The translations under genes were made by a program, and so were the position numbers. From positions 1-41,119 of the forward strand of contig DASYUT010000043.1 in the NCBI GenBank assembly GCA_036000965.1: a stretch of DNA of 41,119 nucleotides, given 5' to 3'. Origin of the DNA: Actinomycetes bacterium. Its GTDB lineage: Bacteria; Actinomycetota; CALGFH01. Shown one piece after another: positions 8,734-21,230 of this stretch. The notes under the pieces were generated by a model. It ran no database searches, was not told the origin of the DNA, and was given only the letters and a program-made list of their open reading frames with translations. Within the stretch, counting starts at the first letter, position 1, and the number at the start of each line of letters is the position of its first letter.

Positions 8734-8813
8734 GCGGAGCCGACCTCGCTGCCCTCACAGACGAAGGGATGGGTCCACGAGGGCGGCCGCTGTGGCCGTT
8801 GCGAGGAGTCCCC

Positions 8814-10079
8814 GTGGCCGCAGCCCTTCCGCGTCTCGGCGTGGACGTTCTGGACGACCTCGACCGACGACTGGCGCCGGCAGACGCCGACCTTGCCGCC
8901 CGCTATCCCGGAGACGCGGGCGGCCGCCAACCGGTGCACACCGTGTACGTCCCTGCCGACCTCATGACTTCCGGGCTCACTGCCGACTGGGGCGCGCAAG
9001 CACGGGCGGCACTCGACCAGCACGCCGCCAGCGCGCCGGCGCTGGCCGAGGCCACCGGAGTCGACGCGACGCTGGTCGCGCGTGTGTTCCCCAGAGTGTT
9101 GGACAAGCTCGCGCGGGAGCCTATCGAGGACCTGCGCCTCGACTTCGAGGACGGGTACGGAGCCCGGCCGGACGAGCAGGAGGACCACGACGCCCTGGCC
9201 GTGGCTCGGGCCCTGGCCACGGAGATCGAAGCAGGGACGTCGCCGCCCTCTGTGGGGCTGCGGATCAAGTGCCTGGAGGCCGCGACCCGGCGCCGAGGGC
9301 TGCGAACGCTGGACCTCTTCCTGAGCGGGCTGCTCGCCCACGCCGCGCTGCCCGACGGGTTCGTCGTCACCCTGCCGAAGGTGACCGACGTGCGTCAGGT
9401 CGAGGCCATGGCCGTGGTCTGCGGCCTACTGGAGCAGGCGCACGGCATGCCCGCGCGCCGACTGAGGTTCGAGATCCAGGTCGAGACGCCGCAGTCGGTC
9501 CTGGCCGCCGACGGGACCGCCGCCGTGGCCAGGATGATCCATGTGGCGGACGGCCGCTGCTCCGGCCTGCACTACGGCACCTACGACTACAGCGCCGCCT
9601 GCGGGATCGCTGCGGCCTACCAGAGCATGGAGCACCCTGTGGCCGATCACGCGAAGGCGGTCATGCAGGTGGCCGCGGCCGCGACCGGCGTCCGCCTGTC
9701 CGACGGGTCCACCAACGTGCTGCCGGTCGGCGACACCCAGGCGGTGCACGCGGCGTGGCGGCTGCACGCCCGCCTGGTCCGCCGGTCCCTGGTGCGCGGC
9801 TACTGGCAGGGCTGGGACATGCACCCGGCCCAGCTGCCCACCCGCTACCTGGCGACCTACGCCTTCTTCCGGGAGGGTCTGCCGGCGGCGGCGGCCCGGC
9901 TGCGGGCGTATGCCGAACGCACCGCCGGCGGCGTGCTCGACGAGCCGGCCACGGCACAGGCGCTGGCCGGGTTCGTGGCCCGTGGCCTCGACTGCCAGGC
10001 GTTGGACGCGACCGAGGTCCAGGAGCTCACCGGGCTGGACCACACGGTAATCGACCGCTATGCGAGGCGAACTGGCTGA
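8814..10079 (+). CDS. DUF6986 family protein, aldolase/citrate-lyase-like
   Basis: This 421-residue protein resembles the HpcH/HpaI-aldolase and citrate-lyase-beta TIM-barrel superfamily. An acidic metal-site motif RLDFEDGYGAR (about residues 115-125), LRIKCLEA, VVTLPKV, FEIQVETPQS and HYGTYDYSAACGI occur in barrel order. I recall it as the DUF6986 group, which recurs near purine and glyoxylate genes in Actinobacteria and has no assigned reaction. A C-C bond lyase or a glyoxylate-condensing reaction is a reasonable inference. The start chosen is GTG 8814, five bases after GAGGAG; an ATG at 8769 is in frame but has no ribosome site. Its promoter region resembles that of the big purine operon, and the IclR regulator gene follows. 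Confidence 0.8.
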   Translation: MAAALPRLGVDVLDDLDRRLAPADADLAARYPGDAGGRQPVHTVYVPADLMTSGLTADWGAQARAALDQHAASAPALAEATGVDATLVARVFPRVLDKLAREPIEDLRLDFEDGYGARPDEQEDHDALAVARALATEIEAGTSPPSVGLRIKCLEAATRRRGLRTLDLFLSGLLAHAALPDGFVVTLPKVTDVRQVEAMAVVCGLLEQAHGMPARRLRFEIQVETPQSVLAADGTAAVARMIHVADGRCSGLHYGTYDYSAACGIAAAYQSMEHPVADHAKAVMQVAAAATGVRLSDGSTNVLPVGDTQAVHAAWRLHARLVRRSLVRGYWQGWDMHPAQLPTRYLATYAFFREGLPAAAARLRAYAERTAGGVLDEPATAQALAGFVARGLDCQALDATEVQELTGLDHTVIDRYARRTG

Positions 10080-12150: not shown

Positions 12151-12990
12151 ATGCTGGTTGCCCGCCCCACGACACTGGCCGAGGTCTTCGACGCGCTCGA
12201 CGAGCTGCCTGACGCGCACCTGCTGGCCGGCGGCACCGACCTGATGGTGGAGGTGAACTTCGGCCACCGGCGTCCGCCGTCCGTGGTCGCGCTGCGCCGC
12301 GTCGAGGAGCTGCGAGGCTACGACGTGCTCGACGACGAGGTCGTGCTCCGCGCTGGAACCACCTGGACGGAGGTCGAGAACGACCTGGTAGACGTCCTTC
12401 CCGGGCTGGCGGCGGCCGCCCGGACGGTGGGCTCGCCCCAGATGCGCAACGCCGGCACCGTAGGCGGGAACGTCGGCACCGCCAGCCCGGCGGGCGACGG
12501 GCTGCCGGTGCTCGGCGCGATGGACGCCACCATCGTGCTCGCCAGCCGCGGCGGCGACCGCCGGCTGCCGCTGGCCGAGTTCATCACCGGGGTCAAGCGC
12601 ACCGCGATCCAGCCGGGCGAGGTCATCCGGGAGGTCCGGGTGCCCCGCCTCGACGGTCCACAGCAGTTCCTCAAGGTGGGCACCCGCAACGCGATGGTGA
12701 TCTCGATCGTGGTCTGCGGCCTGGTCGTCGACCGGGCCGGCCGCAGCGTGCGGCTCGGCCTCGGCTCGGTGTCGCCGCGGCCGCTGCGGGCCACCGCCGC
12801 CGAGGAGTTCATCGCCGGTGAGATCGACTGGGACGCCATGACCGCCCCGCCGGACGCGGTGGCCAGGTTCGGCCAGCTGGCCCGCGATGCCGCCACCCCC
12901 ATCTCCGACCAGCGCGGCACGGCCGAGTTCCGCCGGCACGCCGTCGGAGTGGTCGCCACCCGAGCACTGCAGAGGAGCCTCGCCGCATGA
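12151..12990 (+). CDS. Xanthine dehydrogenase family, FAD-binding subunit
   Basis: This 279-residue subunit carries FAD between the iron-sulfur centres and NAD+. Both FAD signatures are present: LLAGGTDLMVE near residue 25-35 and the phosphate-binding RNAGTVGGNVG near 105-115. The C-terminal CO-dehydrogenase flavoprotein domain has KVGTRNAMVISIV and LGLGSVSPRPLRAT. It starts eleven bases after the reductase with AGGGGT upstream and overlaps the next gene by four bases. The three-subunit order FAD, 2Fe-2S, molybdenum and the uricase next door support xanthine (or hypoxanthine) as substrate rather than CO or nicotinate. Confidence 0.93.
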   Translation: MLVARPTTLAEVFDALDELPDAHLLAGGTDLMVEVNFGHRRPPSVVALRRVEELRGYDVLDDEVVLRAGTTWTEVENDLVDVLPGLAAAARTVGSPQMRNAGTVGGNVGTASPAGDGLPVLGAMDATIVLASRGGDRRLPLAEFITGVKRTAIQPGEVIREVRVPRLDGPQQFLKVGTRNAMVISIVVCGLVVDRAGRSVRLGLGSVSPRPLRATAAEEFIAGEIDWDAMTAPPDAVARFGQLARDAATPISDQRGTAEFRRHAVGVVATRALQRSLAA

Positions 12991-13502
12991 GCGTGCAACC
13001 GGCCGCCCCGGACGCCCAGCCCACCGAGAGCTACCGCCTGTCGGTCAACGGCAAGGACCGGGAGGTCGCCGACGCCTGGATCGGCGAGAGCCTGCTCTAC
13101 GTGCTCAGGGAGCGCCTCGCCCTCCCCGGCGCCAAGAACGCCTGCGAGCAGGGCGAGTGCGGCTCCTGCTCGGTGATGCTCGACGGCACCCTGGTGGCCT
13201 CCTGCTGCGTGATGGCCGCCGACGCGGTCGGCAGCGACGTCCGCACTGTCGAGGGCCTGAGCCCCGAGGGCGAGCTGACCGACGTCCAGCGGGCCTTCTT
13301 CGAGCAGGGTGCCGTGCAGTGCGGCTTCTGCATCCCCGGGATGATCGTGGCCATGCACGACCTGCTGGACCGCCGGCCCGACGCCGACGAGCTGGCGCTG
13401 CGCGAGGCCCTCTCCGGCAACCTGTGCCGCTGCACCGGATACGGCAGGATCTTCGCCGCCTTCCACGCCGTCAAGGAGGAGCGCGCCCGTGCCAGCACCT
13501 AG
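12987..13502 (+). CDS. Xanthine dehydrogenase family, 2Fe-2S subunit
   Basis: This 171-residue electron-transfer subunit carries two [2Fe-2S] clusters. The plant-type ferredoxin domain has CEQGECGSC and a fourth Cys in ASCC (about residues 52-75). The helical second domain has CGFCIPGM and CRCTGYGRI (about 112-153). It starts inside the stop of the FAD subunit (ATGA) and overlaps the molybdenum subunit by 14 bases, so the three are made in fixed ratio. An N-terminal extension of about 15 residues precedes the ferredoxin fold, which is within the family range. Confidence 0.95.
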   Translation: MSVQPAAPDAQPTESYRLSVNGKDREVADAWIGESLLYVLRERLALPGAKNACEQGECGSCSVMLDGTLVASCCVMAADAVGSDVRTVEGLSPEGELTDVQRAFFEQGAVQCGFCIPGMIVAMHDLLDRRPDADELALREALSGNLCRCTGYGRIFAAFHAVKEERARAST

Positions 13503-15807
13503 CCTGCCAAGCACCTTCACGCGCACGCGCCGGGCTCCCGGCCTGGGCGAGAGCGTCCTGCGGCCGGACGCCCCGGCCAAGACCAAGGGCGAGTTCGCCT
13601 TCTCCTCCGACCTGTGGACGGAGGGCATGGTCTGGGGCGCGACCCTGCGCAGCCCCCACCCATACGCCCGCATCCGGGTGATGGACACCGCCCCGGCCCT
13701 CGCCATCCCGGGCGTGCACGCGGTGATCACCAACGACGACCTGTGGGGCAGCCGGACCTACGGCCTGGAGCACCACGACCAGCCGGTGTTCGCCGACGGG
13801 GTGGTGCGGTTCCACGGCGAGCCGGTCGCCGCCGTCGCCGCCGACCACCCCGAGATCGCCCGCCGGGCCGCCGACGCGATCGTGGTGGACTACGAGGTCC
13901 TCGCCCCGGTCGTCGACCCCGAGGCGGCCATGGTCGGCGAGGCCATCCACCCCGCCGGCAACCTGTTCAGGCACCTGAGGGTCCGCTTCGGAGACCCGGA
14001 CGCCCAGGGTGAGGTGGTCGTCGAGGGCGACTACGAGGTCGGCATGCAGGACCAGGCGTTCCTCGGCCCGGAGTCCGGCCTGGCCGTGCCGAGCGAGGAC
14101 GGCGGCGTCGAGCTGTACGTCGCCACCCAGTGGCTGCACGTCGACCGCGACCAGATCGCCGCCTGCCTGAACCTGCCAAGGGAGAAGGTGCGGCTCACCC
14201 TCGCCGGGACCGGCGGCGCCTTCGGCGGCCGCGAGGACCTGTCCATGCAGATCCACGCCTGCCTGCTGGCCCTGGTCACGCGCAAGCCGGTCAAGATGGT
14301 GTACAGCCGCGAGGAGTCGTTCTTCGGCCACGTCCATCGCCACCCTGCCCGGCTCTGGTACCGCCACCACGCCTCCCGCGACGGGCGGCTGGTCAACGTC
14401 GAATGCCGAATGGTGTTCGACGGCGGCGCGTACACCTCGTCGTCGACGGCGGTGATCTCCAATGCCTCCGCCTTCGCCCCCGGCCCCTACTTCACCCCGA
14501 ACGCGAAAGTCGACGGCTTCGCCGTGCGCACCAACAACCCGCCGTGCGGCGCGATGCGCGGCTTCGGCGCGGTGCAGACCTCCTTCGCCGCCGAGGCGCA
14601 GATGGACAAGCTGGCCGCGGCCCTCGGGATCGACCCGGTCGAGCTGCGCCTGCGCAACGCGCTGAAGACCCACGACCAGCTGATCACCGGGCAGGTGATC
14701 ACCGGCACCGCCCCGGTCGCCGAGTGCATCGTCGCCTGCCGCGACCTGCCGATGCCGGAGCCACTGTCGGCCGACGCGCCGGTGATGTCGCTGCCGGGAG
14801 GTGCCGGGCTGACCGCCCTGCATGGCGACGTGCGGCGCGGCGTCGGCTTCGCGGTCGGGTTCAAGAACCTGGCCTTCTCCGAGGGGTTCGACGACTACTC
14901 CACCGCGCGGGTGCGCCTGGAGCTCGGCCCGGGCGGCGAGCCGGTGGCCACGGTGCACGTCGCCACCGCCGAGGTCGGCCAGGGGTTCGTCACCATCGGC
15001 CAGCAGATCGCCCGCGCCGAGCTGGGCGTGACCGAGGTCGTCGTCCACCCCGCCGACACCCAGGTCGGCTCCGCCGGCTCCACCAGCGCCTCGCGCCAGA
15101 CGATGATGTCCGGCGGCGCGGTGCAAATGGCCTGCTCGGCCGTTCGCGAGGTGATCCTCGAGCGGGCGGCCCTCGACCTGCACCTGGCGCCGGCGGACAT
15201 GGTGCTGGAAGAGGGCGAGCTGGTGACCAAGGACGGCGCCGCCAGCGTGTCGCTGGCCGACGCGCTGCGCGCCGGCCCGATCGAGGCGACCCGCGAGTTC
15301 CACCACGCCCCGACGGAGCCGCTCGACGAGAACGGCCAGGGCAACGCGCACTGGTCCCTGGCGTTCGCCGCGCACCGCGCGGTGGTCGACGTCGACCCGG
15401 AACTCGGGCTGGTGCGCGTCGTCCAGGTGGCCACCGCCCAGGACATCGGGCGGGCGCTGAACCCCTTGGCCGTCACCGGCCAGATCGAGGGCGGCATCGC
15501 GCAGGGCGTCGGGCTCGCCGTGATGGAGGAGATCATCGTCGAGGAGGGACGGGTCAGGAACCCGTCGTTCACCGACTACCTGCTCCCGACCGCCCTGGAC
15601 ATGCCACCGGTGGTGCAGACCTGGATCGAGCAGCCCGAGCGGGGAGCGCCGTACGGGGCCAAGGGCGTCGGCGAGCCGCCGACCATCTCCTCGACCGGGG
15701 CGGTGGTGGCCGCCATCCGGCAGGCGACCAACCTGCCGCTGAACCGGATCCCGGTGCGGCCGGACGACATCGCGCTGTCCCCGGAGGCAGCCGCCCGACT
15801 AGCGTGA
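13489..15807 (+). CDS. Xanthine dehydrogenase family, molybdopterin-binding catalytic subunit
   Basis: This 772-residue subunit holds the molybdenum cofactor and hydroxylates the purine ring (hypoxanthine to xanthine to urate). The small domain (residues 15-140) includes DAPAKTKGEFAFSSD and GEPVAAVAADHPEIA. The cofactor domain has GTGGAFGGRED, GAMRGFGAVQ, VGQGF and SRQTMMSGGA. The catalytic Glu sits in GAKGVGEPPT near the C-terminus. The start is a GTG inside the preceding gene. Length is that of the bacterial three-subunit enzymes. Substrate choice within the family is inferred from the uricase gene directly downstream. Confidence 0.95.
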   Translation: MPAPSLPSTFTRTRRAPGLGESVLRPDAPAKTKGEFAFSSDLWTEGMVWGATLRSPHPYARIRVMDTAPALAIPGVHAVITNDDLWGSRTYGLEHHDQPVFADGVVRFHGEPVAAVAADHPEIARRAADAIVVDYEVLAPVVDPEAAMVGEAIHPAGNLFRHLRVRFGDPDAQGEVVVEGDYEVGMQDQAFLGPESGLAVPSEDGGVELYVATQWLHVDRDQIAACLNLPREKVRLTLAGTGGAFGGREDLSMQIHACLLALVTRKPVKMVYSREESFFGHVHRHPARLWYRHHASRDGRLVNVECRMVFDGGAYTSSSTAVISNASAFAPGPYFTPNAKVDGFAVRTNNPPCGAMRGFGAVQTSFAAEAQMDKLAAALGIDPVELRLRNALKTHDQLITGQVITGTAPVAECIVACRDLPMPEPLSADAPVMSLPGGAGLTALHGDVRRGVGFAVGFKNLAFSEGFDDYSTARVRLELGPGGEPVATVHVATAEVGQGFVTIGQQIARAELGVTEVVVHPADTQVGSAGSTSASRQTMMSGGAVQMACSAVREVILERAALDLHLAPADMVLEEGELVTKDGAASVSLADALRAGPIEATREFHHAPTEPLDENGQGNAHWSLAFAAHRAVVDVDPELGLVRVVQVATAQDIGRALNPLAVTGQIEGGIAQGVGLAVMEEIIVEEGRVRNPSFTDYLLPTALDMPPVVQTWIEQPERGAPYGAKGVGEPPTISSTGAVVAAIRQATNLPLNRIPVRPDDIALSPEAAARLA

Positions 15808-15820
15808 GGAGTCGGAGGCC

Positions 15821-16663
15821 ATGGGCATCGTCCTGGGTGCGAACAGCTACGGCAAGGCAGGCAACCACCTGTTCAAAGTGGTGCGCGCCACCGACAGGCA
15901 CGAGGTGCGCGACTACCGCGTGGACGTGGCCCTGACGGGCGACTACGACGCGGTGCACACCCACGGCGACAACACCGGCGCCATGGCCACCGACACCATG
16001 CGCAACACCGTGTACGCCGTCGCCAAGCAGCACGACTTCGACTCCCCGGAGCGGTACGGGCTGCAACTGGTGGACTACCTGCTGACCCAGCCGCGGGTCA
16101 GGGTGGCCAGGGTGAGCGTGGTCGAGCAGCGCTGGAACCGGATCGTGGTCGACGGCCGGCCGCACGACCACGCCTTCACCAAGGCCGCCGGCGGCAAGCA
16201 CACCGCGGTCGTCACCGGCGAGGGCGACCGGCGGGCGGTCAGCGCCGGCCTCGACGACCTGCACGTGCTGAAGACGACCAACTCGGGATGGTCGAACTTC
16301 CTCGAAGGCGGCTACCGGACCCTCAAGGACACCGACGACCGCATCCTCGCCACCAGCATCACCGCGTCCTGGGACTACCGCGAGCCGAGCGGCGACTTCG
16401 GCGCATGGTGGGACGGGGTGCACGAGCAGATCGGCCGCACCTTCACCGACCACTTCAGCCCGTCGGTGCAACACACCATCTGGCGCATGGGCCAGGCGAT
16501 CCTGGAGAGATTCGAGCAGATCGAGCGGATCAGCTTCACCCTGCCCAACAAGCACCACCTCCTCTACGACCTCGCCCCGTTCGGCATGGACAACGACCGG
16601 GAGATCTACTGGGTGACGGTCGAGCCCTACGGACGCATCCAGGCGACCGTCGAGCGCGACTGA
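15821..16663 (+). CDS. Urate oxidase (uricase)
   Basis: This 280-residue cofactor-free T-fold enzyme oxidises urate with O2 to 5-hydroxyisourate and H2O2. Catalytic residues are visible: Lys12 in NSYGKAGN, the charge-relay Thr in GAMATDTMRNTVY, and Asn/His in LPNKHHLLYDL. The tunnelling-fold repeat pair is complete: VARVSVVEQRWNRI in the first half, KTTNSGWSNFLEG and TSITASWDYR in the second. A GGAGG and an AGGAG precede the ATG. The stand-alone form contrasts with the Bacillus enzyme, which is fused to OHCU decarboxylase. In this operon that decarboxylase is instead fused to the next gene, a permease. Confidence 0.97.
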   Translation: MGIVLGANSYGKAGNHLFKVVRATDRHEVRDYRVDVALTGDYDAVHTHGDNTGAMATDTMRNTVYAVAKQHDFDSPERYGLQLVDYLLTQPRVRVARVSVVEQRWNRIVVDGRPHDHAFTKAAGGKHTAVVTGEGDRRAVSAGLDDLHVLKTTNSGWSNFLEGGYRTLKDTDDRILATSITASWDYREPSGDFGAWWDGVHEQIGRTFTDHFSPSVQHTIWRMGQAILERFEQIERISFTLPNKHHLLYDLAPFGMDNDREIYWVTVEPYGRIQATVERD

Positions 16664-16702: not shown

Positions 16703-18628
16703 ATGGCCAGGACAGACCAGAGGGCATCCGACCGCCCCGCCGTCCATCCGTGGGACGAGATCCTGCCGCCGCCGAAGCTGGCCATCTACGGGTTCCAGCA
16801 CGTGCTGGCGTTCTACGCCGGCGCGGTGATCGTGCCGATCCTGCTCGCCGGCGCCATCAAGCTCACGCCGGAGCAGCTCGCCTACCTGATCAACGCCGAC
16901 CTGTTCACCTGTGGCATCGCCTCGATCATCCAGTCGGTCGGCTTCTGGAAGATCGGCGTTCGGATGCCGCTGCTGCAGGGCGTCACCTTCGCCGCGGTGT
17001 CCCCGATGATCAGCATCGGCCTGGCCGAGGGCGGCGGTGTGCCCGGCCTGCGGGCGATCTACGGCTCCGTGATCATCGCCGGGATCGTCGCGTTCCTGGT
17101 CGCCCCCTTCTTCGCCAGGCTGATCCGGCTCTTCCCCCCGATCGTCACCGGGACCGTCATCACCATCATCGGCATCGTCCTGCTGTCGGTCGCCGCCCTG
17201 GACGCCGGGGGCGGCGGCGCCAGCCAGTTCACCAACCCGCCCACCTTCGGGCGCATCCGCAACCTGGCCCTCGCCGGCTTCACGCTGCTGGTGATCCTGC
17301 TCATCTACCGGCTGTTCACCGGCTTCGTGGCCACCATCGCGGTGCTCATCGGCCTGATCGTCGGCACGCTGGCCGGCTGGATCTTCGACTTCACCGACTT
17401 CTCGAGGGTCGGCGGCGCCGACGTGCTCGGCGTCACCACGCCCTTCCACTTCGGCACCCCGACCTTCAAGGTGGCCGCGATCATCTCCATGGTGGTGGTG
17501 ATGCTGATCACCATGGTGGAGACCACCGGGGACGTCTTCGCCTGCGGCGAGATCGTCGGCAAGCCGATCGACAAGGGGGACGTCGGCAGGGCGCTGCGGG
17601 CCGACGGCCTGGCCACCACCCTCGGCGGCATCCTCAACTCCTTCCCGTACACCTGCTTCGCCGAGAACGTGGGGCTGGTGCGGCTCACCAAGGTGAAGAG
17701 CCGCTTCGTGGTCGCCACCGCCGGGTTGTTCATGATCGTGATCGGGCTGATCCCGAAGGTCGGCGCGGTGGTCGCGGCGATCCCGCCGCCGGTGCTCGGC
17801 GGTGCCGGGTTCGCCCTGTTCGGCACCGTGGCCGTGATCGGCATCCAGACGCTGCGGCGGGTCGACTTCCACGACGAGCGCAACGTGATCATCCTGGCCG
17901 TCAGCCTCGGCTTCGCGATGATGCCGACCGTCTACCCGACGATCGTCAACTTCTTCCCCGAGTCGGTGCGCACGATCATCTCCAGCGGCATCACTCTCGG
18001 CAGCATCAGCGCCATCCTGCTCAACCTGGTCTTCAACGTCTGGGGCGGCCGCAGCAACCTGGTCACCAAGGTCCTGCCGATCCCGCGCCGCGACGAGGTC
18101 CTCACCATCGACCAGGTCAACCAGATGGACCGCGACCAGTTCGTCGGCACCTTCGGCGGCCTGTTCCAGGGGCCGCCCTGGATCGCCGAGCAGGCCTACC
18201 GGGCGCGGCCGTTCGAGGACGTGTACGACCTGCGCAAGGCCTTCCACGACGTGCTGTTCGACGCGCCGGCGGAGCGGCAGCTCGAGCTGATCCGGCAGTA
18301 CCCGGACCTGGCCGGCGTGGCCACCCGCGAGGGCCGGCTGTCCACCCGCTCGGTGATGGACCAGGCGTTCGCCGGCCTCGACCAGCTCAGCAGCGACGAG
18401 TACACCTCCTTCGACGACCTCAACCACGCCTACCGGGAGAAGTTCGGCTTCCCGCTGGTGGTCGCGGTGCGCGAGAACACCAAGGAGACCATCCTCAAGG
18501 CCGGCAACGCGCGGCTGCAGAACTCTCCCGCCGCCGAGCAGGCCACCGCGCTGGTCGAGATCGCCAAGATCGCCAACCTGCGCCTGCTCGACATCGTGGA
18601 GGAGCCGGTCGAGCAGCCGGCGTCGTGA
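16703..18628 (+). CDS. NCS2 purine permease fused to an OHCU decarboxylase-like domain
   Basis: This 641-residue protein has two parts. Residues 1-460 form a nucleobase-ascorbate (NCS2) permease with about 14 hydrophobic segments, the TM8 motif MVETTGDVFACGEIVG and the TM10 signature ENVGLVRLTK. It should import xanthine, urate or a related purine. Residues 466-640 form a full-length OHCU decarboxylase fold (TIDQVNQMD, LFQGPPWIAEQA, DQAFAGLDQLSSDEY, KFGFPLVVAVRENTK, EIAKIANLRLLDIVE), placed in the cytoplasm after the last helix. The catalytic His of canonical enzymes (HPxLxG) is Tyr533 here (QYPDLAG), and the SxxEQ Glu is Asp553. Ser550, Gln554 and Pro534 are kept, with the same 17-residue spacing from the His position to the Ser. 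A canonical decarboxylase occurs separately two genes on. The domain may be a substrate sensor, a scaffold or an altered enzyme. Confidence 0.92.
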   Translation: MARTDQRASDRPAVHPWDEILPPPKLAIYGFQHVLAFYAGAVIVPILLAGAIKLTPEQLAYLINADLFTCGIASIIQSVGFWKIGVRMPLLQGVTFAAVSPMISIGLAEGGGVPGLRAIYGSVIIAGIVAFLVAPFFARLIRLFPPIVTGTVITIIGIVLLSVAALDAGGGGASQFTNPPTFGRIRNLALAGFTLLVILLIYRLFTGFVATIAVLIGLIVGTLAGWIFDFTDFSRVGGADVLGVTTPFHFGTPTFKVAAIISMVVVMLITMVETTGDVFACGEIVGKPIDKGDVGRALRADGLATTLGGILNSFPYTCFAENVGLVRLTKVKSRFVVATAGLFMIVIGLIPKVGAVVAAIPPPVLGGAGFALFGTVAVIGIQTLRRVDFHDERNVIILAVSLGFAMMPTVYPTIVNFFPESVRTIISSGITLGSISAILLNLVFNVWGGRSNLVTKVLPIPRRDEVLTIDQVNQMDRDQFVGTFGGLFQGPPWIAEQAYRARPFEDVYDLRKAFHDVLFDAPAERQLELIRQYPDLAGVATREGRLSTRSVMDQAFAGLDQLSSDEYTSFDDLNHAYREKFGFPLVVAVRENTKETILKAGNARLQNSPAAEQATALVEIAKIANLRLLDIVEEPVEQPAS

Positions 18629-19941
18629 GCGCGGCCATGGGCCGGCTGGTCCTGCGGGGCGCCCGCTGGCCGGGCGACGTCGCGATCACGGGAGGCAGAA
18701 TCGCCGCGGTCGGCTCGGTGCCCGAGGAGGCGGGCGACGAGGTGGTCCGGGTCGACGGCGACATCATCACCGCCGGCCTGATCAACACCCACCACCACTT
18801 CTACCAGTGGATGACCCGCGGCTGGGCCTTCGACTGCACGCTGTTCGGCTGGCTGACGACGCTGTACCCGGTCTGGGCGCGCATCGGGCCGGAGGACGTC
18901 GAGGCCGCGGCGGCCGTTGCCATGGGCGAGCTGGCGCTCACCGGCTGCACCACCGCGGCCGACCACCACTACGTGGTGCTCGGCGGTGACGACTCGGTGT
19001 TCGACGCGATCGCCGCCGCCGCCCGCACCATCGGGATCCGCGCCCACATCGCCCGCGGCTCCATGGACCTGGGCGAGAGCAAGGGCGGGCTGCCGCCCGA
19101 CTCGGTGGTCGAGGACCTGGACGCGATCCTCGCCTCGACGGCGGCGGTGCACGCGCGGCTCCACGACGGCGAGCGCATCGTCGTCACGGTCGCGCCGTGC
19201 AGCCCGTTCAGTGTCACCACCGACCTGATGACGGAGTCGGTGGCGCTGGCCCGACGCCTCGGGCTGCGCGTGCACACCCATCTCGCCGAGACGCTGGACG
19301 AGGAGCGCGACTGCATCGCCCGCTTCGGCAAGCGTCCGCTCGACCTCCTCGACGAGATCGGATGGATCGCCGGCGACGTCTGGGTGGCGCACGGCATCCA
19401 CTTCAACGACGCGGAGGTCAAGCGCCTCGGGAACACCGCCACCGGCATCGCCCACTGCCCCTCCAGCAACTGCCGCCTCGGCTCCGGGATCTGCCGCGTC
19501 AACGACCTGGTCGACGCCGGGGCCCCGGTCGGGCTCGGCGTGGACGGTGTGGCGTCCAACGAGATCGGCGGACTGCTTCCGGAGCTGCGCATGGCGCTGT
19601 TCCTGGCTCGGCAGCGCACCATGGATCCCGCCTCGTTCATGCCGGTCGACGCCCTTCGCCTGGCGAGTGAGGGAGGCGCCCGGTGTCTGGGTCGCGGTGA
19701 CATCGGCCGGCTGGATCCGGGCTGCAGGGCAGACGTCGTGGTCTGGCCCGGGGACGACCTCGCCGACGTCCTGGATCCCCTCGCGGGACTCGTGCTCGGC
19801 CCCGAGCGTCGGGCGCGCCATGTCTTCGTCGAGGGTGAGTACGTCGTCCGCGACGGGCACCTGGTCGGCGCGGACATCCGGGACCTGCGGCGCGAGCTGG
19901 CACGGCGGGCGCGGCGGCTGTGGCCCGAGGACGCGGCATGA
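18625..19941 (+). CDS. 8-oxoguanine/guanine deaminase (amidohydrolase superfamily)
   Basis: This protein of about 438 residues is a metal-dependent hydrolase of the TRZ/ATZ group. Metal ligands appear as TAGLINTHHHFYQ, RVHTHLAE, WVAHGIHF and the Asp in LGVDGVASNE. PCSPFSVTTDLM and the GVDG(S/V)ASN block are those of 8-oxoguanine deaminase-type enzymes. It would deaminate guanine or 8-oxoguanine to xanthine or urate, feeding the dehydrogenase and uricase of the operon. A GTG at 18625 overlaps the permease stop (GTGA) and is chosen as a coupled start; the ATG at 18637 is an in-frame alternative. It overlaps the next gene by four bases. Confidence 0.88.
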   Translation: MSAAMGRLVLRGARWPGDVAITGGRIAAVGSVPEEAGDEVVRVDGDIITAGLINTHHHFYQWMTRGWAFDCTLFGWLTTLYPVWARIGPEDVEAAAAVAMGELALTGCTTAADHHYVVLGGDDSVFDAIAAAARTIGIRAHIARGSMDLGESKGGLPPDSVVEDLDAILASTAAVHARLHDGERIVVTVAPCSPFSVTTDLMTESVALARRLGLRVHTHLAETLDEERDCIARFGKRPLDLLDEIGWIAGDVWVAHGIHFNDAEVKRLGNTATGIAHCPSSNCRLGSGICRVNDLVDAGAPVGLGVDGVASNEIGGLLPELRMALFLARQRTMDPASFMPVDALRLASEGGARCLGRGDIGRLDPGCRADVVVWPGDDLADVLDPLAGLVLGPERRARHVFVEGEYVVRDGHLVGADIRDLRRELARRARRLWPEDAA

Positions 19942-20453
19942 CCGAGGGCAGGACCACCGAGCAGCGGCAGCTGCGCTGGTTCAACCAGCTCACCGACCAA
20001 GAGGCGGTCGGCGCGCTGCTGGGTGTCTGCCACTCCACGAGATGGGCCGAGCAAGTGGCGGGGCGGCGGCCATTTCCGTCCGTGGAGATCTTGCAGGCCG
20101 TCGCGGACGAGGTCTGGACGAGCCTCACGCCCGACGACTGGCTGGAAGCCCTCGACGCCCACCCGCGCATCGGCGAGCGCGGTGGAGCATCGGCAGCGTG
20201 GTCCCGCCGCGAGCAGGCAGGGGTCGGCCAGGCCAGCAACGACGTCCGGGCCGCGATCGACCGGGGCAACCGTGCCTACGAGGAGCGCTTCGGCCACGTG
20301 TTCCTCATCTCGGCCGCTGGCCGCAGCGCCGAGGAGATCCTGGCCAACCTCCGCGACCGGATGGACAACGACCCGGGGACAGAGGTTCGCGTCGCCGCGG
20401 AGGAACAGCGGCGGATCACCCGGTTGCGGATCGAGAGGCTGATGCAGGAATGA
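19938..20453 (+). CDS. uraD: OHCU decarboxylase (stand-alone)
   Basis: This 171-residue enzyme decarboxylates 2-oxo-4-hydroxy-4-carboxy-5-ureidoimidazoline to S-allantoin, the last step from urate. It opens with LRWFNQLTDQEAVGALLGVCHSTRWAEQVA. Unlike the domain fused to the permease, it keeps the catalytic set: His75 in DAHPRIGE and Ser89, Glu92 and Gln93 in SRREQ. The ERFGHVFLISAAGRS strand-helix and EEQRRITRLRIERLM C-terminus complete the all-helical fold. The start lies in an ATGA overlap with the deaminase stop. It also overlaps HIU hydrolase by four bases, so consecutive pathway enzymes are translated together. Confidence 0.93.
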   Translation: MTEGRTTEQRQLRWFNQLTDQEAVGALLGVCHSTRWAEQVAGRRPFPSVEILQAVADEVWTSLTPDDWLEALDAHPRIGERGGASAAWSRREQAGVGQASNDVRAAIDRGNRAYEERFGHVFLISAAGRSAEEILANLRDRMDNDPGTEVRVAAEEQRRITRLRIERLMQE

Positions 20454-20806
20454 GCGCGGTCACCACCCACGTCCTGGACACGGCCCGCGGCCGCCCGGCG
20501 GCCGGCATGCGGGTCACCTTGGCGGTGTGCGCCGACGCTGCGGTGTGCGCCGACGCTGCCTGGACGCCACTGGGCGCCGGGGTCACCGACGACGACGGCC
20601 GGCTCGGTGACCTCGTCGCCGAGGGCGCGCTCCGGGCCGGGGTGCACCGCATGACGTTCCACACCGGGGAGTGGTTCGCCGCGGAGCAGGCAGACAGCTT
20701 CTACCCGGAGGTGAGCGTCGTGTTCGAGGTCCGCGACCCGGGTGGCCACTACCATGTCCCGCTGCTGGTCAGCCCCTTTGGCTACAGCACCTACCGGGGG
20801 AGCTGA
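20450..20806 (+). CDS. uraH: 5-hydroxyisourate hydrolase (transthyretin-like)
   Basis: This 118-residue enzyme hydrolyses 5-hydroxyisourate, the uricase product, to OHCU. The family ends are clear: TTHVLDTARGRPAAGM at the N-terminus, GVTDDDGRLGDL in the middle, and HYHVPLLVSPFGYSTYRGS at the C-terminus with the terminal YRGS tetrapeptide. The catalytic His residues (near the N-terminus and in HYHVP) and the Arg in DGRLGD are present. An exact 18-bp tandem duplication inserts a second AVCADA at about residues 25-36, in the loop between the first two strands. The frame is kept, so the enzyme may still fold. Start is by an ATGA overlap with uraD. Confidence 0.93.
   Translation: MSAVTTHVLDTARGRPAAGMRVTLAVCADAAVCADAAWTPLGAGVTDDDGRLGDLVAEGALRAGVHRMTFHTGEWFAAEQADSFYPEVSVVFEVRDPGGHYHVPLLVSPFGYSTYRGS
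20522..20557. repeat. Exact 18-bp tandem duplication inside uraH
   Basis: GCGGTGTGCGCCGACGCT occurs twice in direct succession (20522-20539 and 20540-20557) with no mismatch. It encodes AVCADA twice. The lack of any silent difference suggests a very recent event or strong slippage. Confidence 0.95.
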
Positions 20807-20810
20807 CGTC

Positions 20811-21230
20811 GTGGCCCACCTGTTCCTCAACGGCGGCGGCATGCGTGACGGCCCCGTGCATCACGAGCTCCAGGGCGCACCACTGGTGGCTGAGACGCGC
20901 ACGGCTCCCCGGTACCGCTTCTACTCGGTGCGCGACGAGTTCCCGGCACTCTGGCCCGTCGAGGACGGCGGCGTCGCGGTGGCCGGCGAGCTGTACGACG
21001 TGCCCCTCGACGTCATGCGCGAGCACCTGCTTCCGGCCGAGCCGGCGGAGCTCGAGCTCAGCGTGATCCAGCTGGAGGACGGCTCCTCCTGTCTGGCGTT
21101 CGTCCTCCGTGCCGACGTCCACCGGCTCGGGCGGGGTCTGGTGGACATCTCCGGCTACGGCGGCTGGCGCGCGCACCAGGCGGCGAGCGCGCGGACCCTG
21201 ACCCCGGGAGCGACCGATGACCCGGTATGA
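20811..21230 (+). CDS. Allophanate-hydrolase-related protein (C-terminal domain only)
   Basis: This 139-residue cytoplasmic protein has the gamma-glutamylcyclotransferase-like fold found as the C-terminal domain of allophanate hydrolase. FLNGGGMRDGPVHHEL, TAPRYRFYSVRDEFPAL, GELYDVPLDVMREHLLPAEP and DISGYGGWRAH are the characteristic blocks. In allophanate hydrolase this domain is reported to decarboxylate N-carboxycarbamate. Here the amidase domain is absent. The stand-alone gene sits between HIU hydrolase and hydroxypyruvate isomerase, where a ureidoglycolate- or allophanate-handling step would be expected. The start is GTG 20811, four bases after the previous stop, with GGGGGAG upstream. 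It overlaps the isomerase by 14 bases. The reaction is unproven. Confidence 0.78.
   Translation: MAHLFLNGGGMRDGPVHHELQGAPLVAETRTAPRYRFYSVRDEFPALWPVEDGGVAVAGELYDVPLDVMREHLLPAEPAELELSVIQLEDGSSCLAFVLRADVHRLGRGLVDISGYGGWRAHQAASARTLTPGATDDPV

What the first reader, a model, noticed from the sequence alone, without database searches (positions are those of the whole stretch)
16703..18628. Purine permease fused to an OHCU decarboxylase-like domain with substituted catalytic residues
Seen: an NCS2 permease (about 460 residues) continues into a complete OHCU decarboxylase fold. The active-site His is Tyr533 (QYPDLAG instead of xHPxLxG), and the SxxEQ Glu is Asp553. Pro534, Ser550 and Gln554 and the 17-residue His-to-Ser spacing are preserved. 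Known: His67 and Glu87 (zebrafish numbering) are the key catalytic residues of this family. A second gene (19938-20453) has the canonical residues. Inference: the fused domain may have turned into a cytoplasmic ligand sensor that gates or reports on import, may channel an intermediate from the permease, or may do altered chemistry.
Basis: partly seen in the sequence, partly recalled or inferred. Interest (0 to 1): 0.8.

Follow-up and report, generated by a model that had tools for sequence, protein, structure and literature searches.

The report
Purine permease carrying a dead-enzyme domain
In many actinobacteria a purine importer carries at its inner end a copy of a urate-pathway enzyme that has lost its catalytic residues but is still maintained by selection, which suggests that an old enzyme was turned into a control or docking part of a transporter.

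Summary
ORF 16703-18628 (641 aa) is an NCS2 xanthine/urate-type permease joined by a short linker to a full OHCU-decarboxylase (UraD) fold. Tyr533 replaces catalytic His67 and Asp553 replaces Glu87 (zebrafish numbering).

It is not a lone mutation. In 49 of 49 distinct NCS2-UraD fusions, nearly all actinobacterial, the His is aromatic (39 Tyr, 10 Phe) and the Glu is Asp or Glu (45/4); the Arg161 equivalent is always kept. In 120 stand-alone UraDs, 119 have His and all have Glu and Gln. UraD domains fused to soluble enzymes keep the catalytic pair, with one degenerate exception.

The fused domains form one clade (bootstrap 100) even with catalytic columns masked. Their permeases do not (AU p=0.0002), so the domain was passed between permeases or lost repeatedly. 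The domain is under purifying selection, and 50 of 51 fusion genomes checked encode a separate UraD.

Best reading: a UraD-derived pseudoenzyme serving as a cytosolic accessory domain, most likely regulating the permease by binding a purine-pathway metabolite. That it is not the OHCU decarboxylase is well supported; sensing is inferred. I found no description in the literature searched.

The parts
16703..18628 (+). Fusion gene: NCS2 permease plus UraD-like pseudoenzyme domain, 641 aa
   Evidence: ORF; Pfam and NCBIfam matches
16775..17938 (+). NCS2 permease domain (aa 25-412)
   Evidence: PF00860 338 bits; TIGR03173 511 bits; full-length model matches UapA, SVCT1 and UraA
18047..18118 (+). Linker (aa 449-472), part of it with low model confidence
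   Evidence: pLDDT below 50 at 449-464; segment 446-473 is 21-29 residues long in 32 of 33 fusions
18119..18586 (+). UraD-like domain (aa 473-628)
   Evidence: PF09349 149 bits; model pLDDT 94, 2o70 TM 0.90-0.97
18299..18301 (+). Tyr533 codon, at the site of catalytic His67
   Evidence: Alignment to 2o70; aromatic in 49 of 49 fusions
18359..18361 (+). Asp553 codon, at the site of catalytic Glu87
   Evidence: Asp 45, Glu 4 of 49 fusions
18581..18583 (+). Arg627 codon, at the site of Arg161
   Evidence: Arg in 49 of 49 fusions and 120 of 120 stand-alones
19938..20453 (+). Stand-alone canonical UraD (UraD_2 subfamily) with AHPRIG and SRREQ
15821..16663 (+). Uricase, upstream neighbour
   Evidence: PF01014, TIGR03383
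18625..19941 (+). Amidohydrolase (guanine-deaminase-like); its GTG overlaps the fusion's TGA
   Evidence: PF01979; junction sequence
20450..20806 (+). HIUase (transthyretin family)
   Evidence: PF00576, TIGR02962
12151..15807 (+). Xanthine-dehydrogenase-type FAD, FeS and molybdopterin subunits
   Evidence: Pfam

Best explanation
The gene encodes an NCS2 purine importer with a C-terminal cytosolic domain that descends from OHCU decarboxylase but no longer catalyses that reaction (a pseudoenzyme). Shown here by sequence: one ancient clade, a clade-wide change of His to aromatic and Glu to Asp (or Glu), Arg161 kept, purifying selection, and a separate UraD in nearly all host genomes. Inferred: the domain has no decarboxylase activity, still binds a small purine-pathway ligand in the old pocket (invariant Arg plus an acidic residue), and that binding tunes transport, for example as feedback when the urate-to-allantoin steps are saturated. 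The position is like that of the STAS domain on SLC26 transporters, which share the transporter fold.
For: 49/49 fusions lack His, 119/120 stand-alones have it. Fused domains are one clade with catalytic columns masked: bootstrap/SH-aLRT 100/100, SH-aLRT 99 in the larger tree. dN/dS of the domain 0.10-0.37. Separate OHCU domain genes in 42 of 43 and 8 further fusion genomes. Columns taken as pocket are more conserved in fusions than random domain columns, 3 of 20,000 draws as low. Narrow linker length and, in Actinomycetes, a shared tail motif. Permease parts are not one clade, AU p=0.0002, compatible with a portable module. Transporter fold shared with UapA/UraA and SLC26. Always found in purine-catabolism settings in the loci where neighbours could be read, with two exceptions.
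Against: No activity, binding or transport data. The pocket columns were picked from general knowledge of UraD, not from coordinates. The linker is flexible in the model and no interdomain contact is shown. Some fusions have also lost Ser84 and Gln88 equivalents, so the ligand, if any, may differ between lineages.
Confidence: 0.5

Rival explanations
1. Docking scaffold: the pseudo-UraD domain (UraD enzymes form dimers) recruits the canonical UraD or other pathway enzymes to the membrane, or helps the permease to dimerise, without sensing a ligand.
For: The fold is kept, catalysis is lost, and linker length and tail motif are conserved. In several lineages the fusion gene is followed directly by a UraD gene.
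Against: In Nocardioides and Kribbella the fusion sits beside xanthine dehydrogenase genes, with no UraD in the stretch read. In Actinomycetes and the window the partner UraD is of a distant subfamily. Pocket Arg and acidic residue are invariant, which docking alone does not require.
Confidence: 0.22
2. Altered chemistry: Tyr/Asp (or Phe/Asp) support a different reaction on a related compound, possibly on a freshly imported one.
For: The acidic residue and Arg are kept in all fusions, and the pocket region stays conserved.
Against: Ten of 49 have Phe, which cannot act as acid or base, and that subclade has also lost Ser and Gln. No second conserved catalytic-looking residue specific to the fusions was found.
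Confidence: 0.12
3. Still an OHCU decarboxylase with reduced or normal activity despite the substitutions, placed at the membrane for convenience.
For: It scores well over the curated UraD cut-off. Asp could partly replace Glu.
Against: The key His is absent in the whole clade, and a separate canonical UraD is present in 50 of 51 genomes checked. UraD domains fused to soluble enzymes keep the His, with one degenerate exception.
Confidence: 0.08
4. Decaying leftover of an old gene fusion with no function.
For: Catalytic residues lost; the domain evolves somewhat faster than the permease in most pairs.
Against: dN/dS 0.10-0.37; many columns invariant in the fused rows compared (N473, F480, P503, R511, L529, Y577, F581, G582, P584, L585, E612, E619, I623, R627) over several bacterial classes; confident fold.
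Confidence: 0.05

Closest known systems
OHCU decarboxylase (UraD; PF09349, TIGR03164 type, e.g. zebrafish 2o70, Atu2327 2o8i)
   Same: Whole fold, HP/SxxEQ spacing, Arg161, FGFP segment; the fused clade lies inside this family.
   Different: Catalytic His replaced by Tyr or Phe, Glu mostly by Asp; fused to a permease; other changes such as Asn574 lost.
NCS2/NAT (SLC23) xanthine-urate permeases (PbuX group; UapA, UraA structures)
   Same: Complete permease domain over the TIGR03173 cut-off; same fold.
   Different: Extra C-terminal domain of about 170 residues; unfused relatives end 11-70 residues after the permease match.
SLC26/SulP transporters with a C-terminal STAS domain
   Same: Same membrane architecture followed by a cytosolic accessory domain; STAS is called regulatory (PMC6497670; fold match).
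   Different: Accessory domain is UraD-like, not STAS; no regulation shown.
Bifunctional UraD fusions (plant TTL, UraD with HIUase or allantoin-pathway enzymes)
   Same: UraD domain in a multi-domain purine-pathway protein.
   Different: Those examined keep HP and SxxEQ, and plant TTL has measured activity (PMC2834698). One degenerate exception, L246.

Membership tests
OHCU decarboxylase (functional enzyme) | UraD fold | tested here: met
   2o70 TM 0.90-0.97, rmsd 0.9-1.0 A
OHCU decarboxylase (functional enzyme) | Catalytic His67 | tested here: not met
   Tyr533; aromatic in 49/49 fusions
OHCU decarboxylase (functional enzyme) | Catalytic Glu87 | tested here: not met
   Asp553; Asp in 45/49 fusions
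OHCU decarboxylase (functional enzyme) | Arg161 equivalent | tested here: met
   Arg627; 49/49
OHCU decarboxylase (functional enzyme) | Decarboxylation of OHCU to (S)-allantoin | not testable with these tools
   Needs an enzyme assay
NCS2 (SLC23) nucleobase permease | Complete permease domain over curated cut-offs | tested here: met
   PF00860 338 bits, TIGR03173 511 bits against 414
NCS2 (SLC23) nucleobase permease | Known NCS2 fold | tested here: met
   Full-length model matches UapA, SVCT1 and UraA
NCS2 (SLC23) nucleobase permease | Transport of a purine | not testable with these tools
   Substrate not shown; xanthine or urate inferred from family and neighbours
SLC26/SulP transporter with STAS domain | STAS fold at the C-terminus | tested here: not met
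   The C-terminal domain is a UraD fold; the likeness is of position only

The most novel reading that the evidence does not exclude
A UraD enzyme was converted once, early in actinobacterial history, into a portable metabolite-sensing gate for NCS2 purine importers, and was then passed between at least three permease lineages: an enzyme-derived counterpart of the STAS domain that gives purine uptake allosteric feedback from urate breakdown.
Probability: 0.35. Interest if true: 0.75.

Novelty: new variant of a known kind. Interest (0 to 1): 0.55.

Why it matters
Fused control domains on transporters are known, but I found no description of a former enzyme of the same pathway serving on an NCS2 purine importer. 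It gives a clean, testable case of enzyme-to-pseudoenzyme conversion linked to transport. It also marks an annotation trap: the window protein passes the UraD equivalog cut-off, and at least one relative (Rubrobacter radiotolerans) is named uraD in its record.

Tried and rejected
A lone mutation or assembly error: rejected, 49 of 49 fusions share the loss of His, in many independent named genomes. Recent duplicate of the neighbouring UraD: rejected, different subfamily. Decay: largely rejected by dN/dS. Search for His-bearing permease fusions in samples of Pseudomonadota (299 genomes), the phylum of the Chloroflexota record G756 (151) and the phylum of the Bacillota record G757 (200): none found; the long Pseudomonadota ORFs that were opened carry no permease and are other fusions, which keep His except L246. 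Long ORFs in the other two phyla were not all opened. The class search around the window reached only 3 genomes. Searches failed on coordinates or handles. Literature searches for this fusion found nothing; most subscription papers are not in the library, and the primary UraD structure papers did not turn up. A look for allantoinase-like genes with a short query written by me gave three hits elsewhere in the genome and was not followed up.

Full report
Observation. ORF 16703-18628 encodes 641 residues with an NCS2 permease (PF00860, aa 25-412) and a complete OHCU decarboxylase domain (PF09349, aa 473-628, 149 bits). It also passes the NCBIfam models for xanthine permease (TIGR03173) and for the decarboxylase domain (TIGR03164). 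Aligned to the zebrafish enzyme 2o70, Tyr533 stands for His67 and Asp553 for Glu87, while Pro68, Ser84, Gln88 and Arg161 are kept. The neighbouring UraD at 19938-20453 is canonical but of another subfamily. The genome (6.47 Mb, 99% complete) has just these two OHCU domains, and the fusion is its only permease of this type at E below 1e-20.

Genomic setting. The window holds, on one strand, xanthine-dehydrogenase-type genes (12151-15807), uricase (15821-16663), the fusion, an amidohydrolase whose GTG overlaps the fusion's stop codon, UraD, HIUase, a short AH_C-domain protein, a TIM-barrel isomerase (Hyi-like), a TPP enzyme (Gcl-like) and glycerate kinase. This looks like a purine-to-glycerate cluster. 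Among 27 fusion loci longer than 6 kb, 17-19 have xanthine dehydrogenase-type subunits and 20 an amidohydrolase in the stretch read, but only 7 have uricase.

Is it a lone mutation? No. Sampling by genome search and by a scan of named genomes gave 49 distinct permease-UraD fusions: the window's own family, Rubrobacteraceae, a Solirubrobacterales genome, many Actinomycetes (Nocardioides, Kribbella, Pedococcus, Geodermatophilus, Pseudonocardia, Mycobacterium, Gordonia, Microbacteriaceae and others) and one alphaproteobacterium (Amaricoccus). At the His67 site they have 39 Tyr and 10 Phe; at Glu87, 45 Asp and 4 Glu; at Arg161, 49 Arg. In 120 stand-alone UraDs: 119 His, 120 Glu, 120 Gln. In the Pseudomonadota sample, UraD domains in other long ORFs keep HP and SxxEQ, apart from one degenerate UraD-HIUase protein. 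No permease fusion with His was found.

Evolution. With catalytic columns masked, the fused domains form one clade inside the TIGR03164-type UraDs, supported 100/100 in the careful tree and 99 in the larger quick tree, where they group with stand-alone actinobacterial UraDs. The permease parts are not one clade: the main group holds 48 fusions, three Rubrobacter fusions lie among unfused permeases, and the Solirubrobacterales one lies elsewhere. A single clade is rejected with AU p=0.0002, and p=0.01 without the Solirubrobacterales row. Either the domain was moved between permease genes or it was lost several times; a portable module is the simpler reading but is not proven. In several Rubrobacter genomes an unfused permease gene abuts a canonical UraD gene, a plausible precursor arrangement.

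Is the domain functional? dN/dS between close pairs is 0.10-0.37 for the domain and 0.08-0.24 for the permease. The domain model is confident (pLDDT 94) and superposes on 2o70 at about 1 A. Twelve columns that I took as pocket are more conserved in fusions than random columns (3 of 20,000 draws as low), although the catalytic five themselves have relaxed. Linker length is narrow, and Actinomycetes share a tail motif (ADANPIHSAR). All but one of the fusion-bearing genomes checked (42 of 43, and 8 further ones) encode another OHCU domain gene; the exception, G770, is a metagenome bin in which the fusion sits near a contig end.

Mechanism. Shown: loss of the enzyme's catalytic residues across an old clade, retained fold and Arg, purifying selection, permease attachment. 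The full-length model has a flexible linker (pLDDT below 50 at 449-464) and I have no interdomain geometry from it. The nearest precedent for a cytosolic regulator on this transporter architecture is the STAS domain of SLC26 (PMC6497670, abstract), and fused control domains are widespread on bacterial transporters (PMC10710835). In M. smegmatis, permease msmeg_1293 and OHCU decarboxylase msmeg_1294 are each induced about four-fold under nitrogen limitation (PMC4617892); the gene order resembles the mycobacterial fusion loci, but whether msmeg_1293 is a fusion was not checked.

Verdict. The finding is a clade-wide pseudoenzyme fusion, a new variant of the known kind 'transporter with fused control domain'. 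The sensing role remains a hypothesis with clear tests.

Noticed in passing
L199 (Rubrobacter radiotolerans plasmid 1) 3615-5612: A permease-UraD fusion is annotated only as uraD (OHCU decarboxylase), whereas a Rhodococcus fusion is annotated as a solute carrier family 23 protein.
   Followed up: partly
L173 (G768:C6:142320-142766), reading frame 1420: A stand-alone mycobacterial UraD-like protein with Tyr at the His site (AYPHIG) but SVCEQ kept: the only non-His among 120 stand-alones. Low-scoring OHCU matches in G744:C6 and G1435:C99 may be the same type.
   Followed up: no
L246 (G937:C136), reading frame 924 on - strand: A Pseudomonadota ORF with a degenerate UraD domain (GVLPDL, no SxxEQ) followed by an HIUase-like domain: a separate case of catalytic loss, without a permease.
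   Followed up: no
L010, and fusions of G087, G109, G119 and G053:C3: One group of Rubrobacter fusions carries an insertion of about 20-25 residues between the HP-like and SxxEQ-like motifs (seen in L010; inferred for the others from split matches).
   Followed up: partly
window 8769-10079: DUF6986 protein (weakly HpcH/HpaI aldolase-like) beside the purine cluster; a homologue lies in the same region in three other fusion loci.
   Followed up: no
window 20742-21230: Short stand-alone protein with the allophanate hydrolase C-terminal domain (PF21986) between HIUase and the Hyi-like gene; no homologue was found in the other fusion loci read.
   Followed up: no
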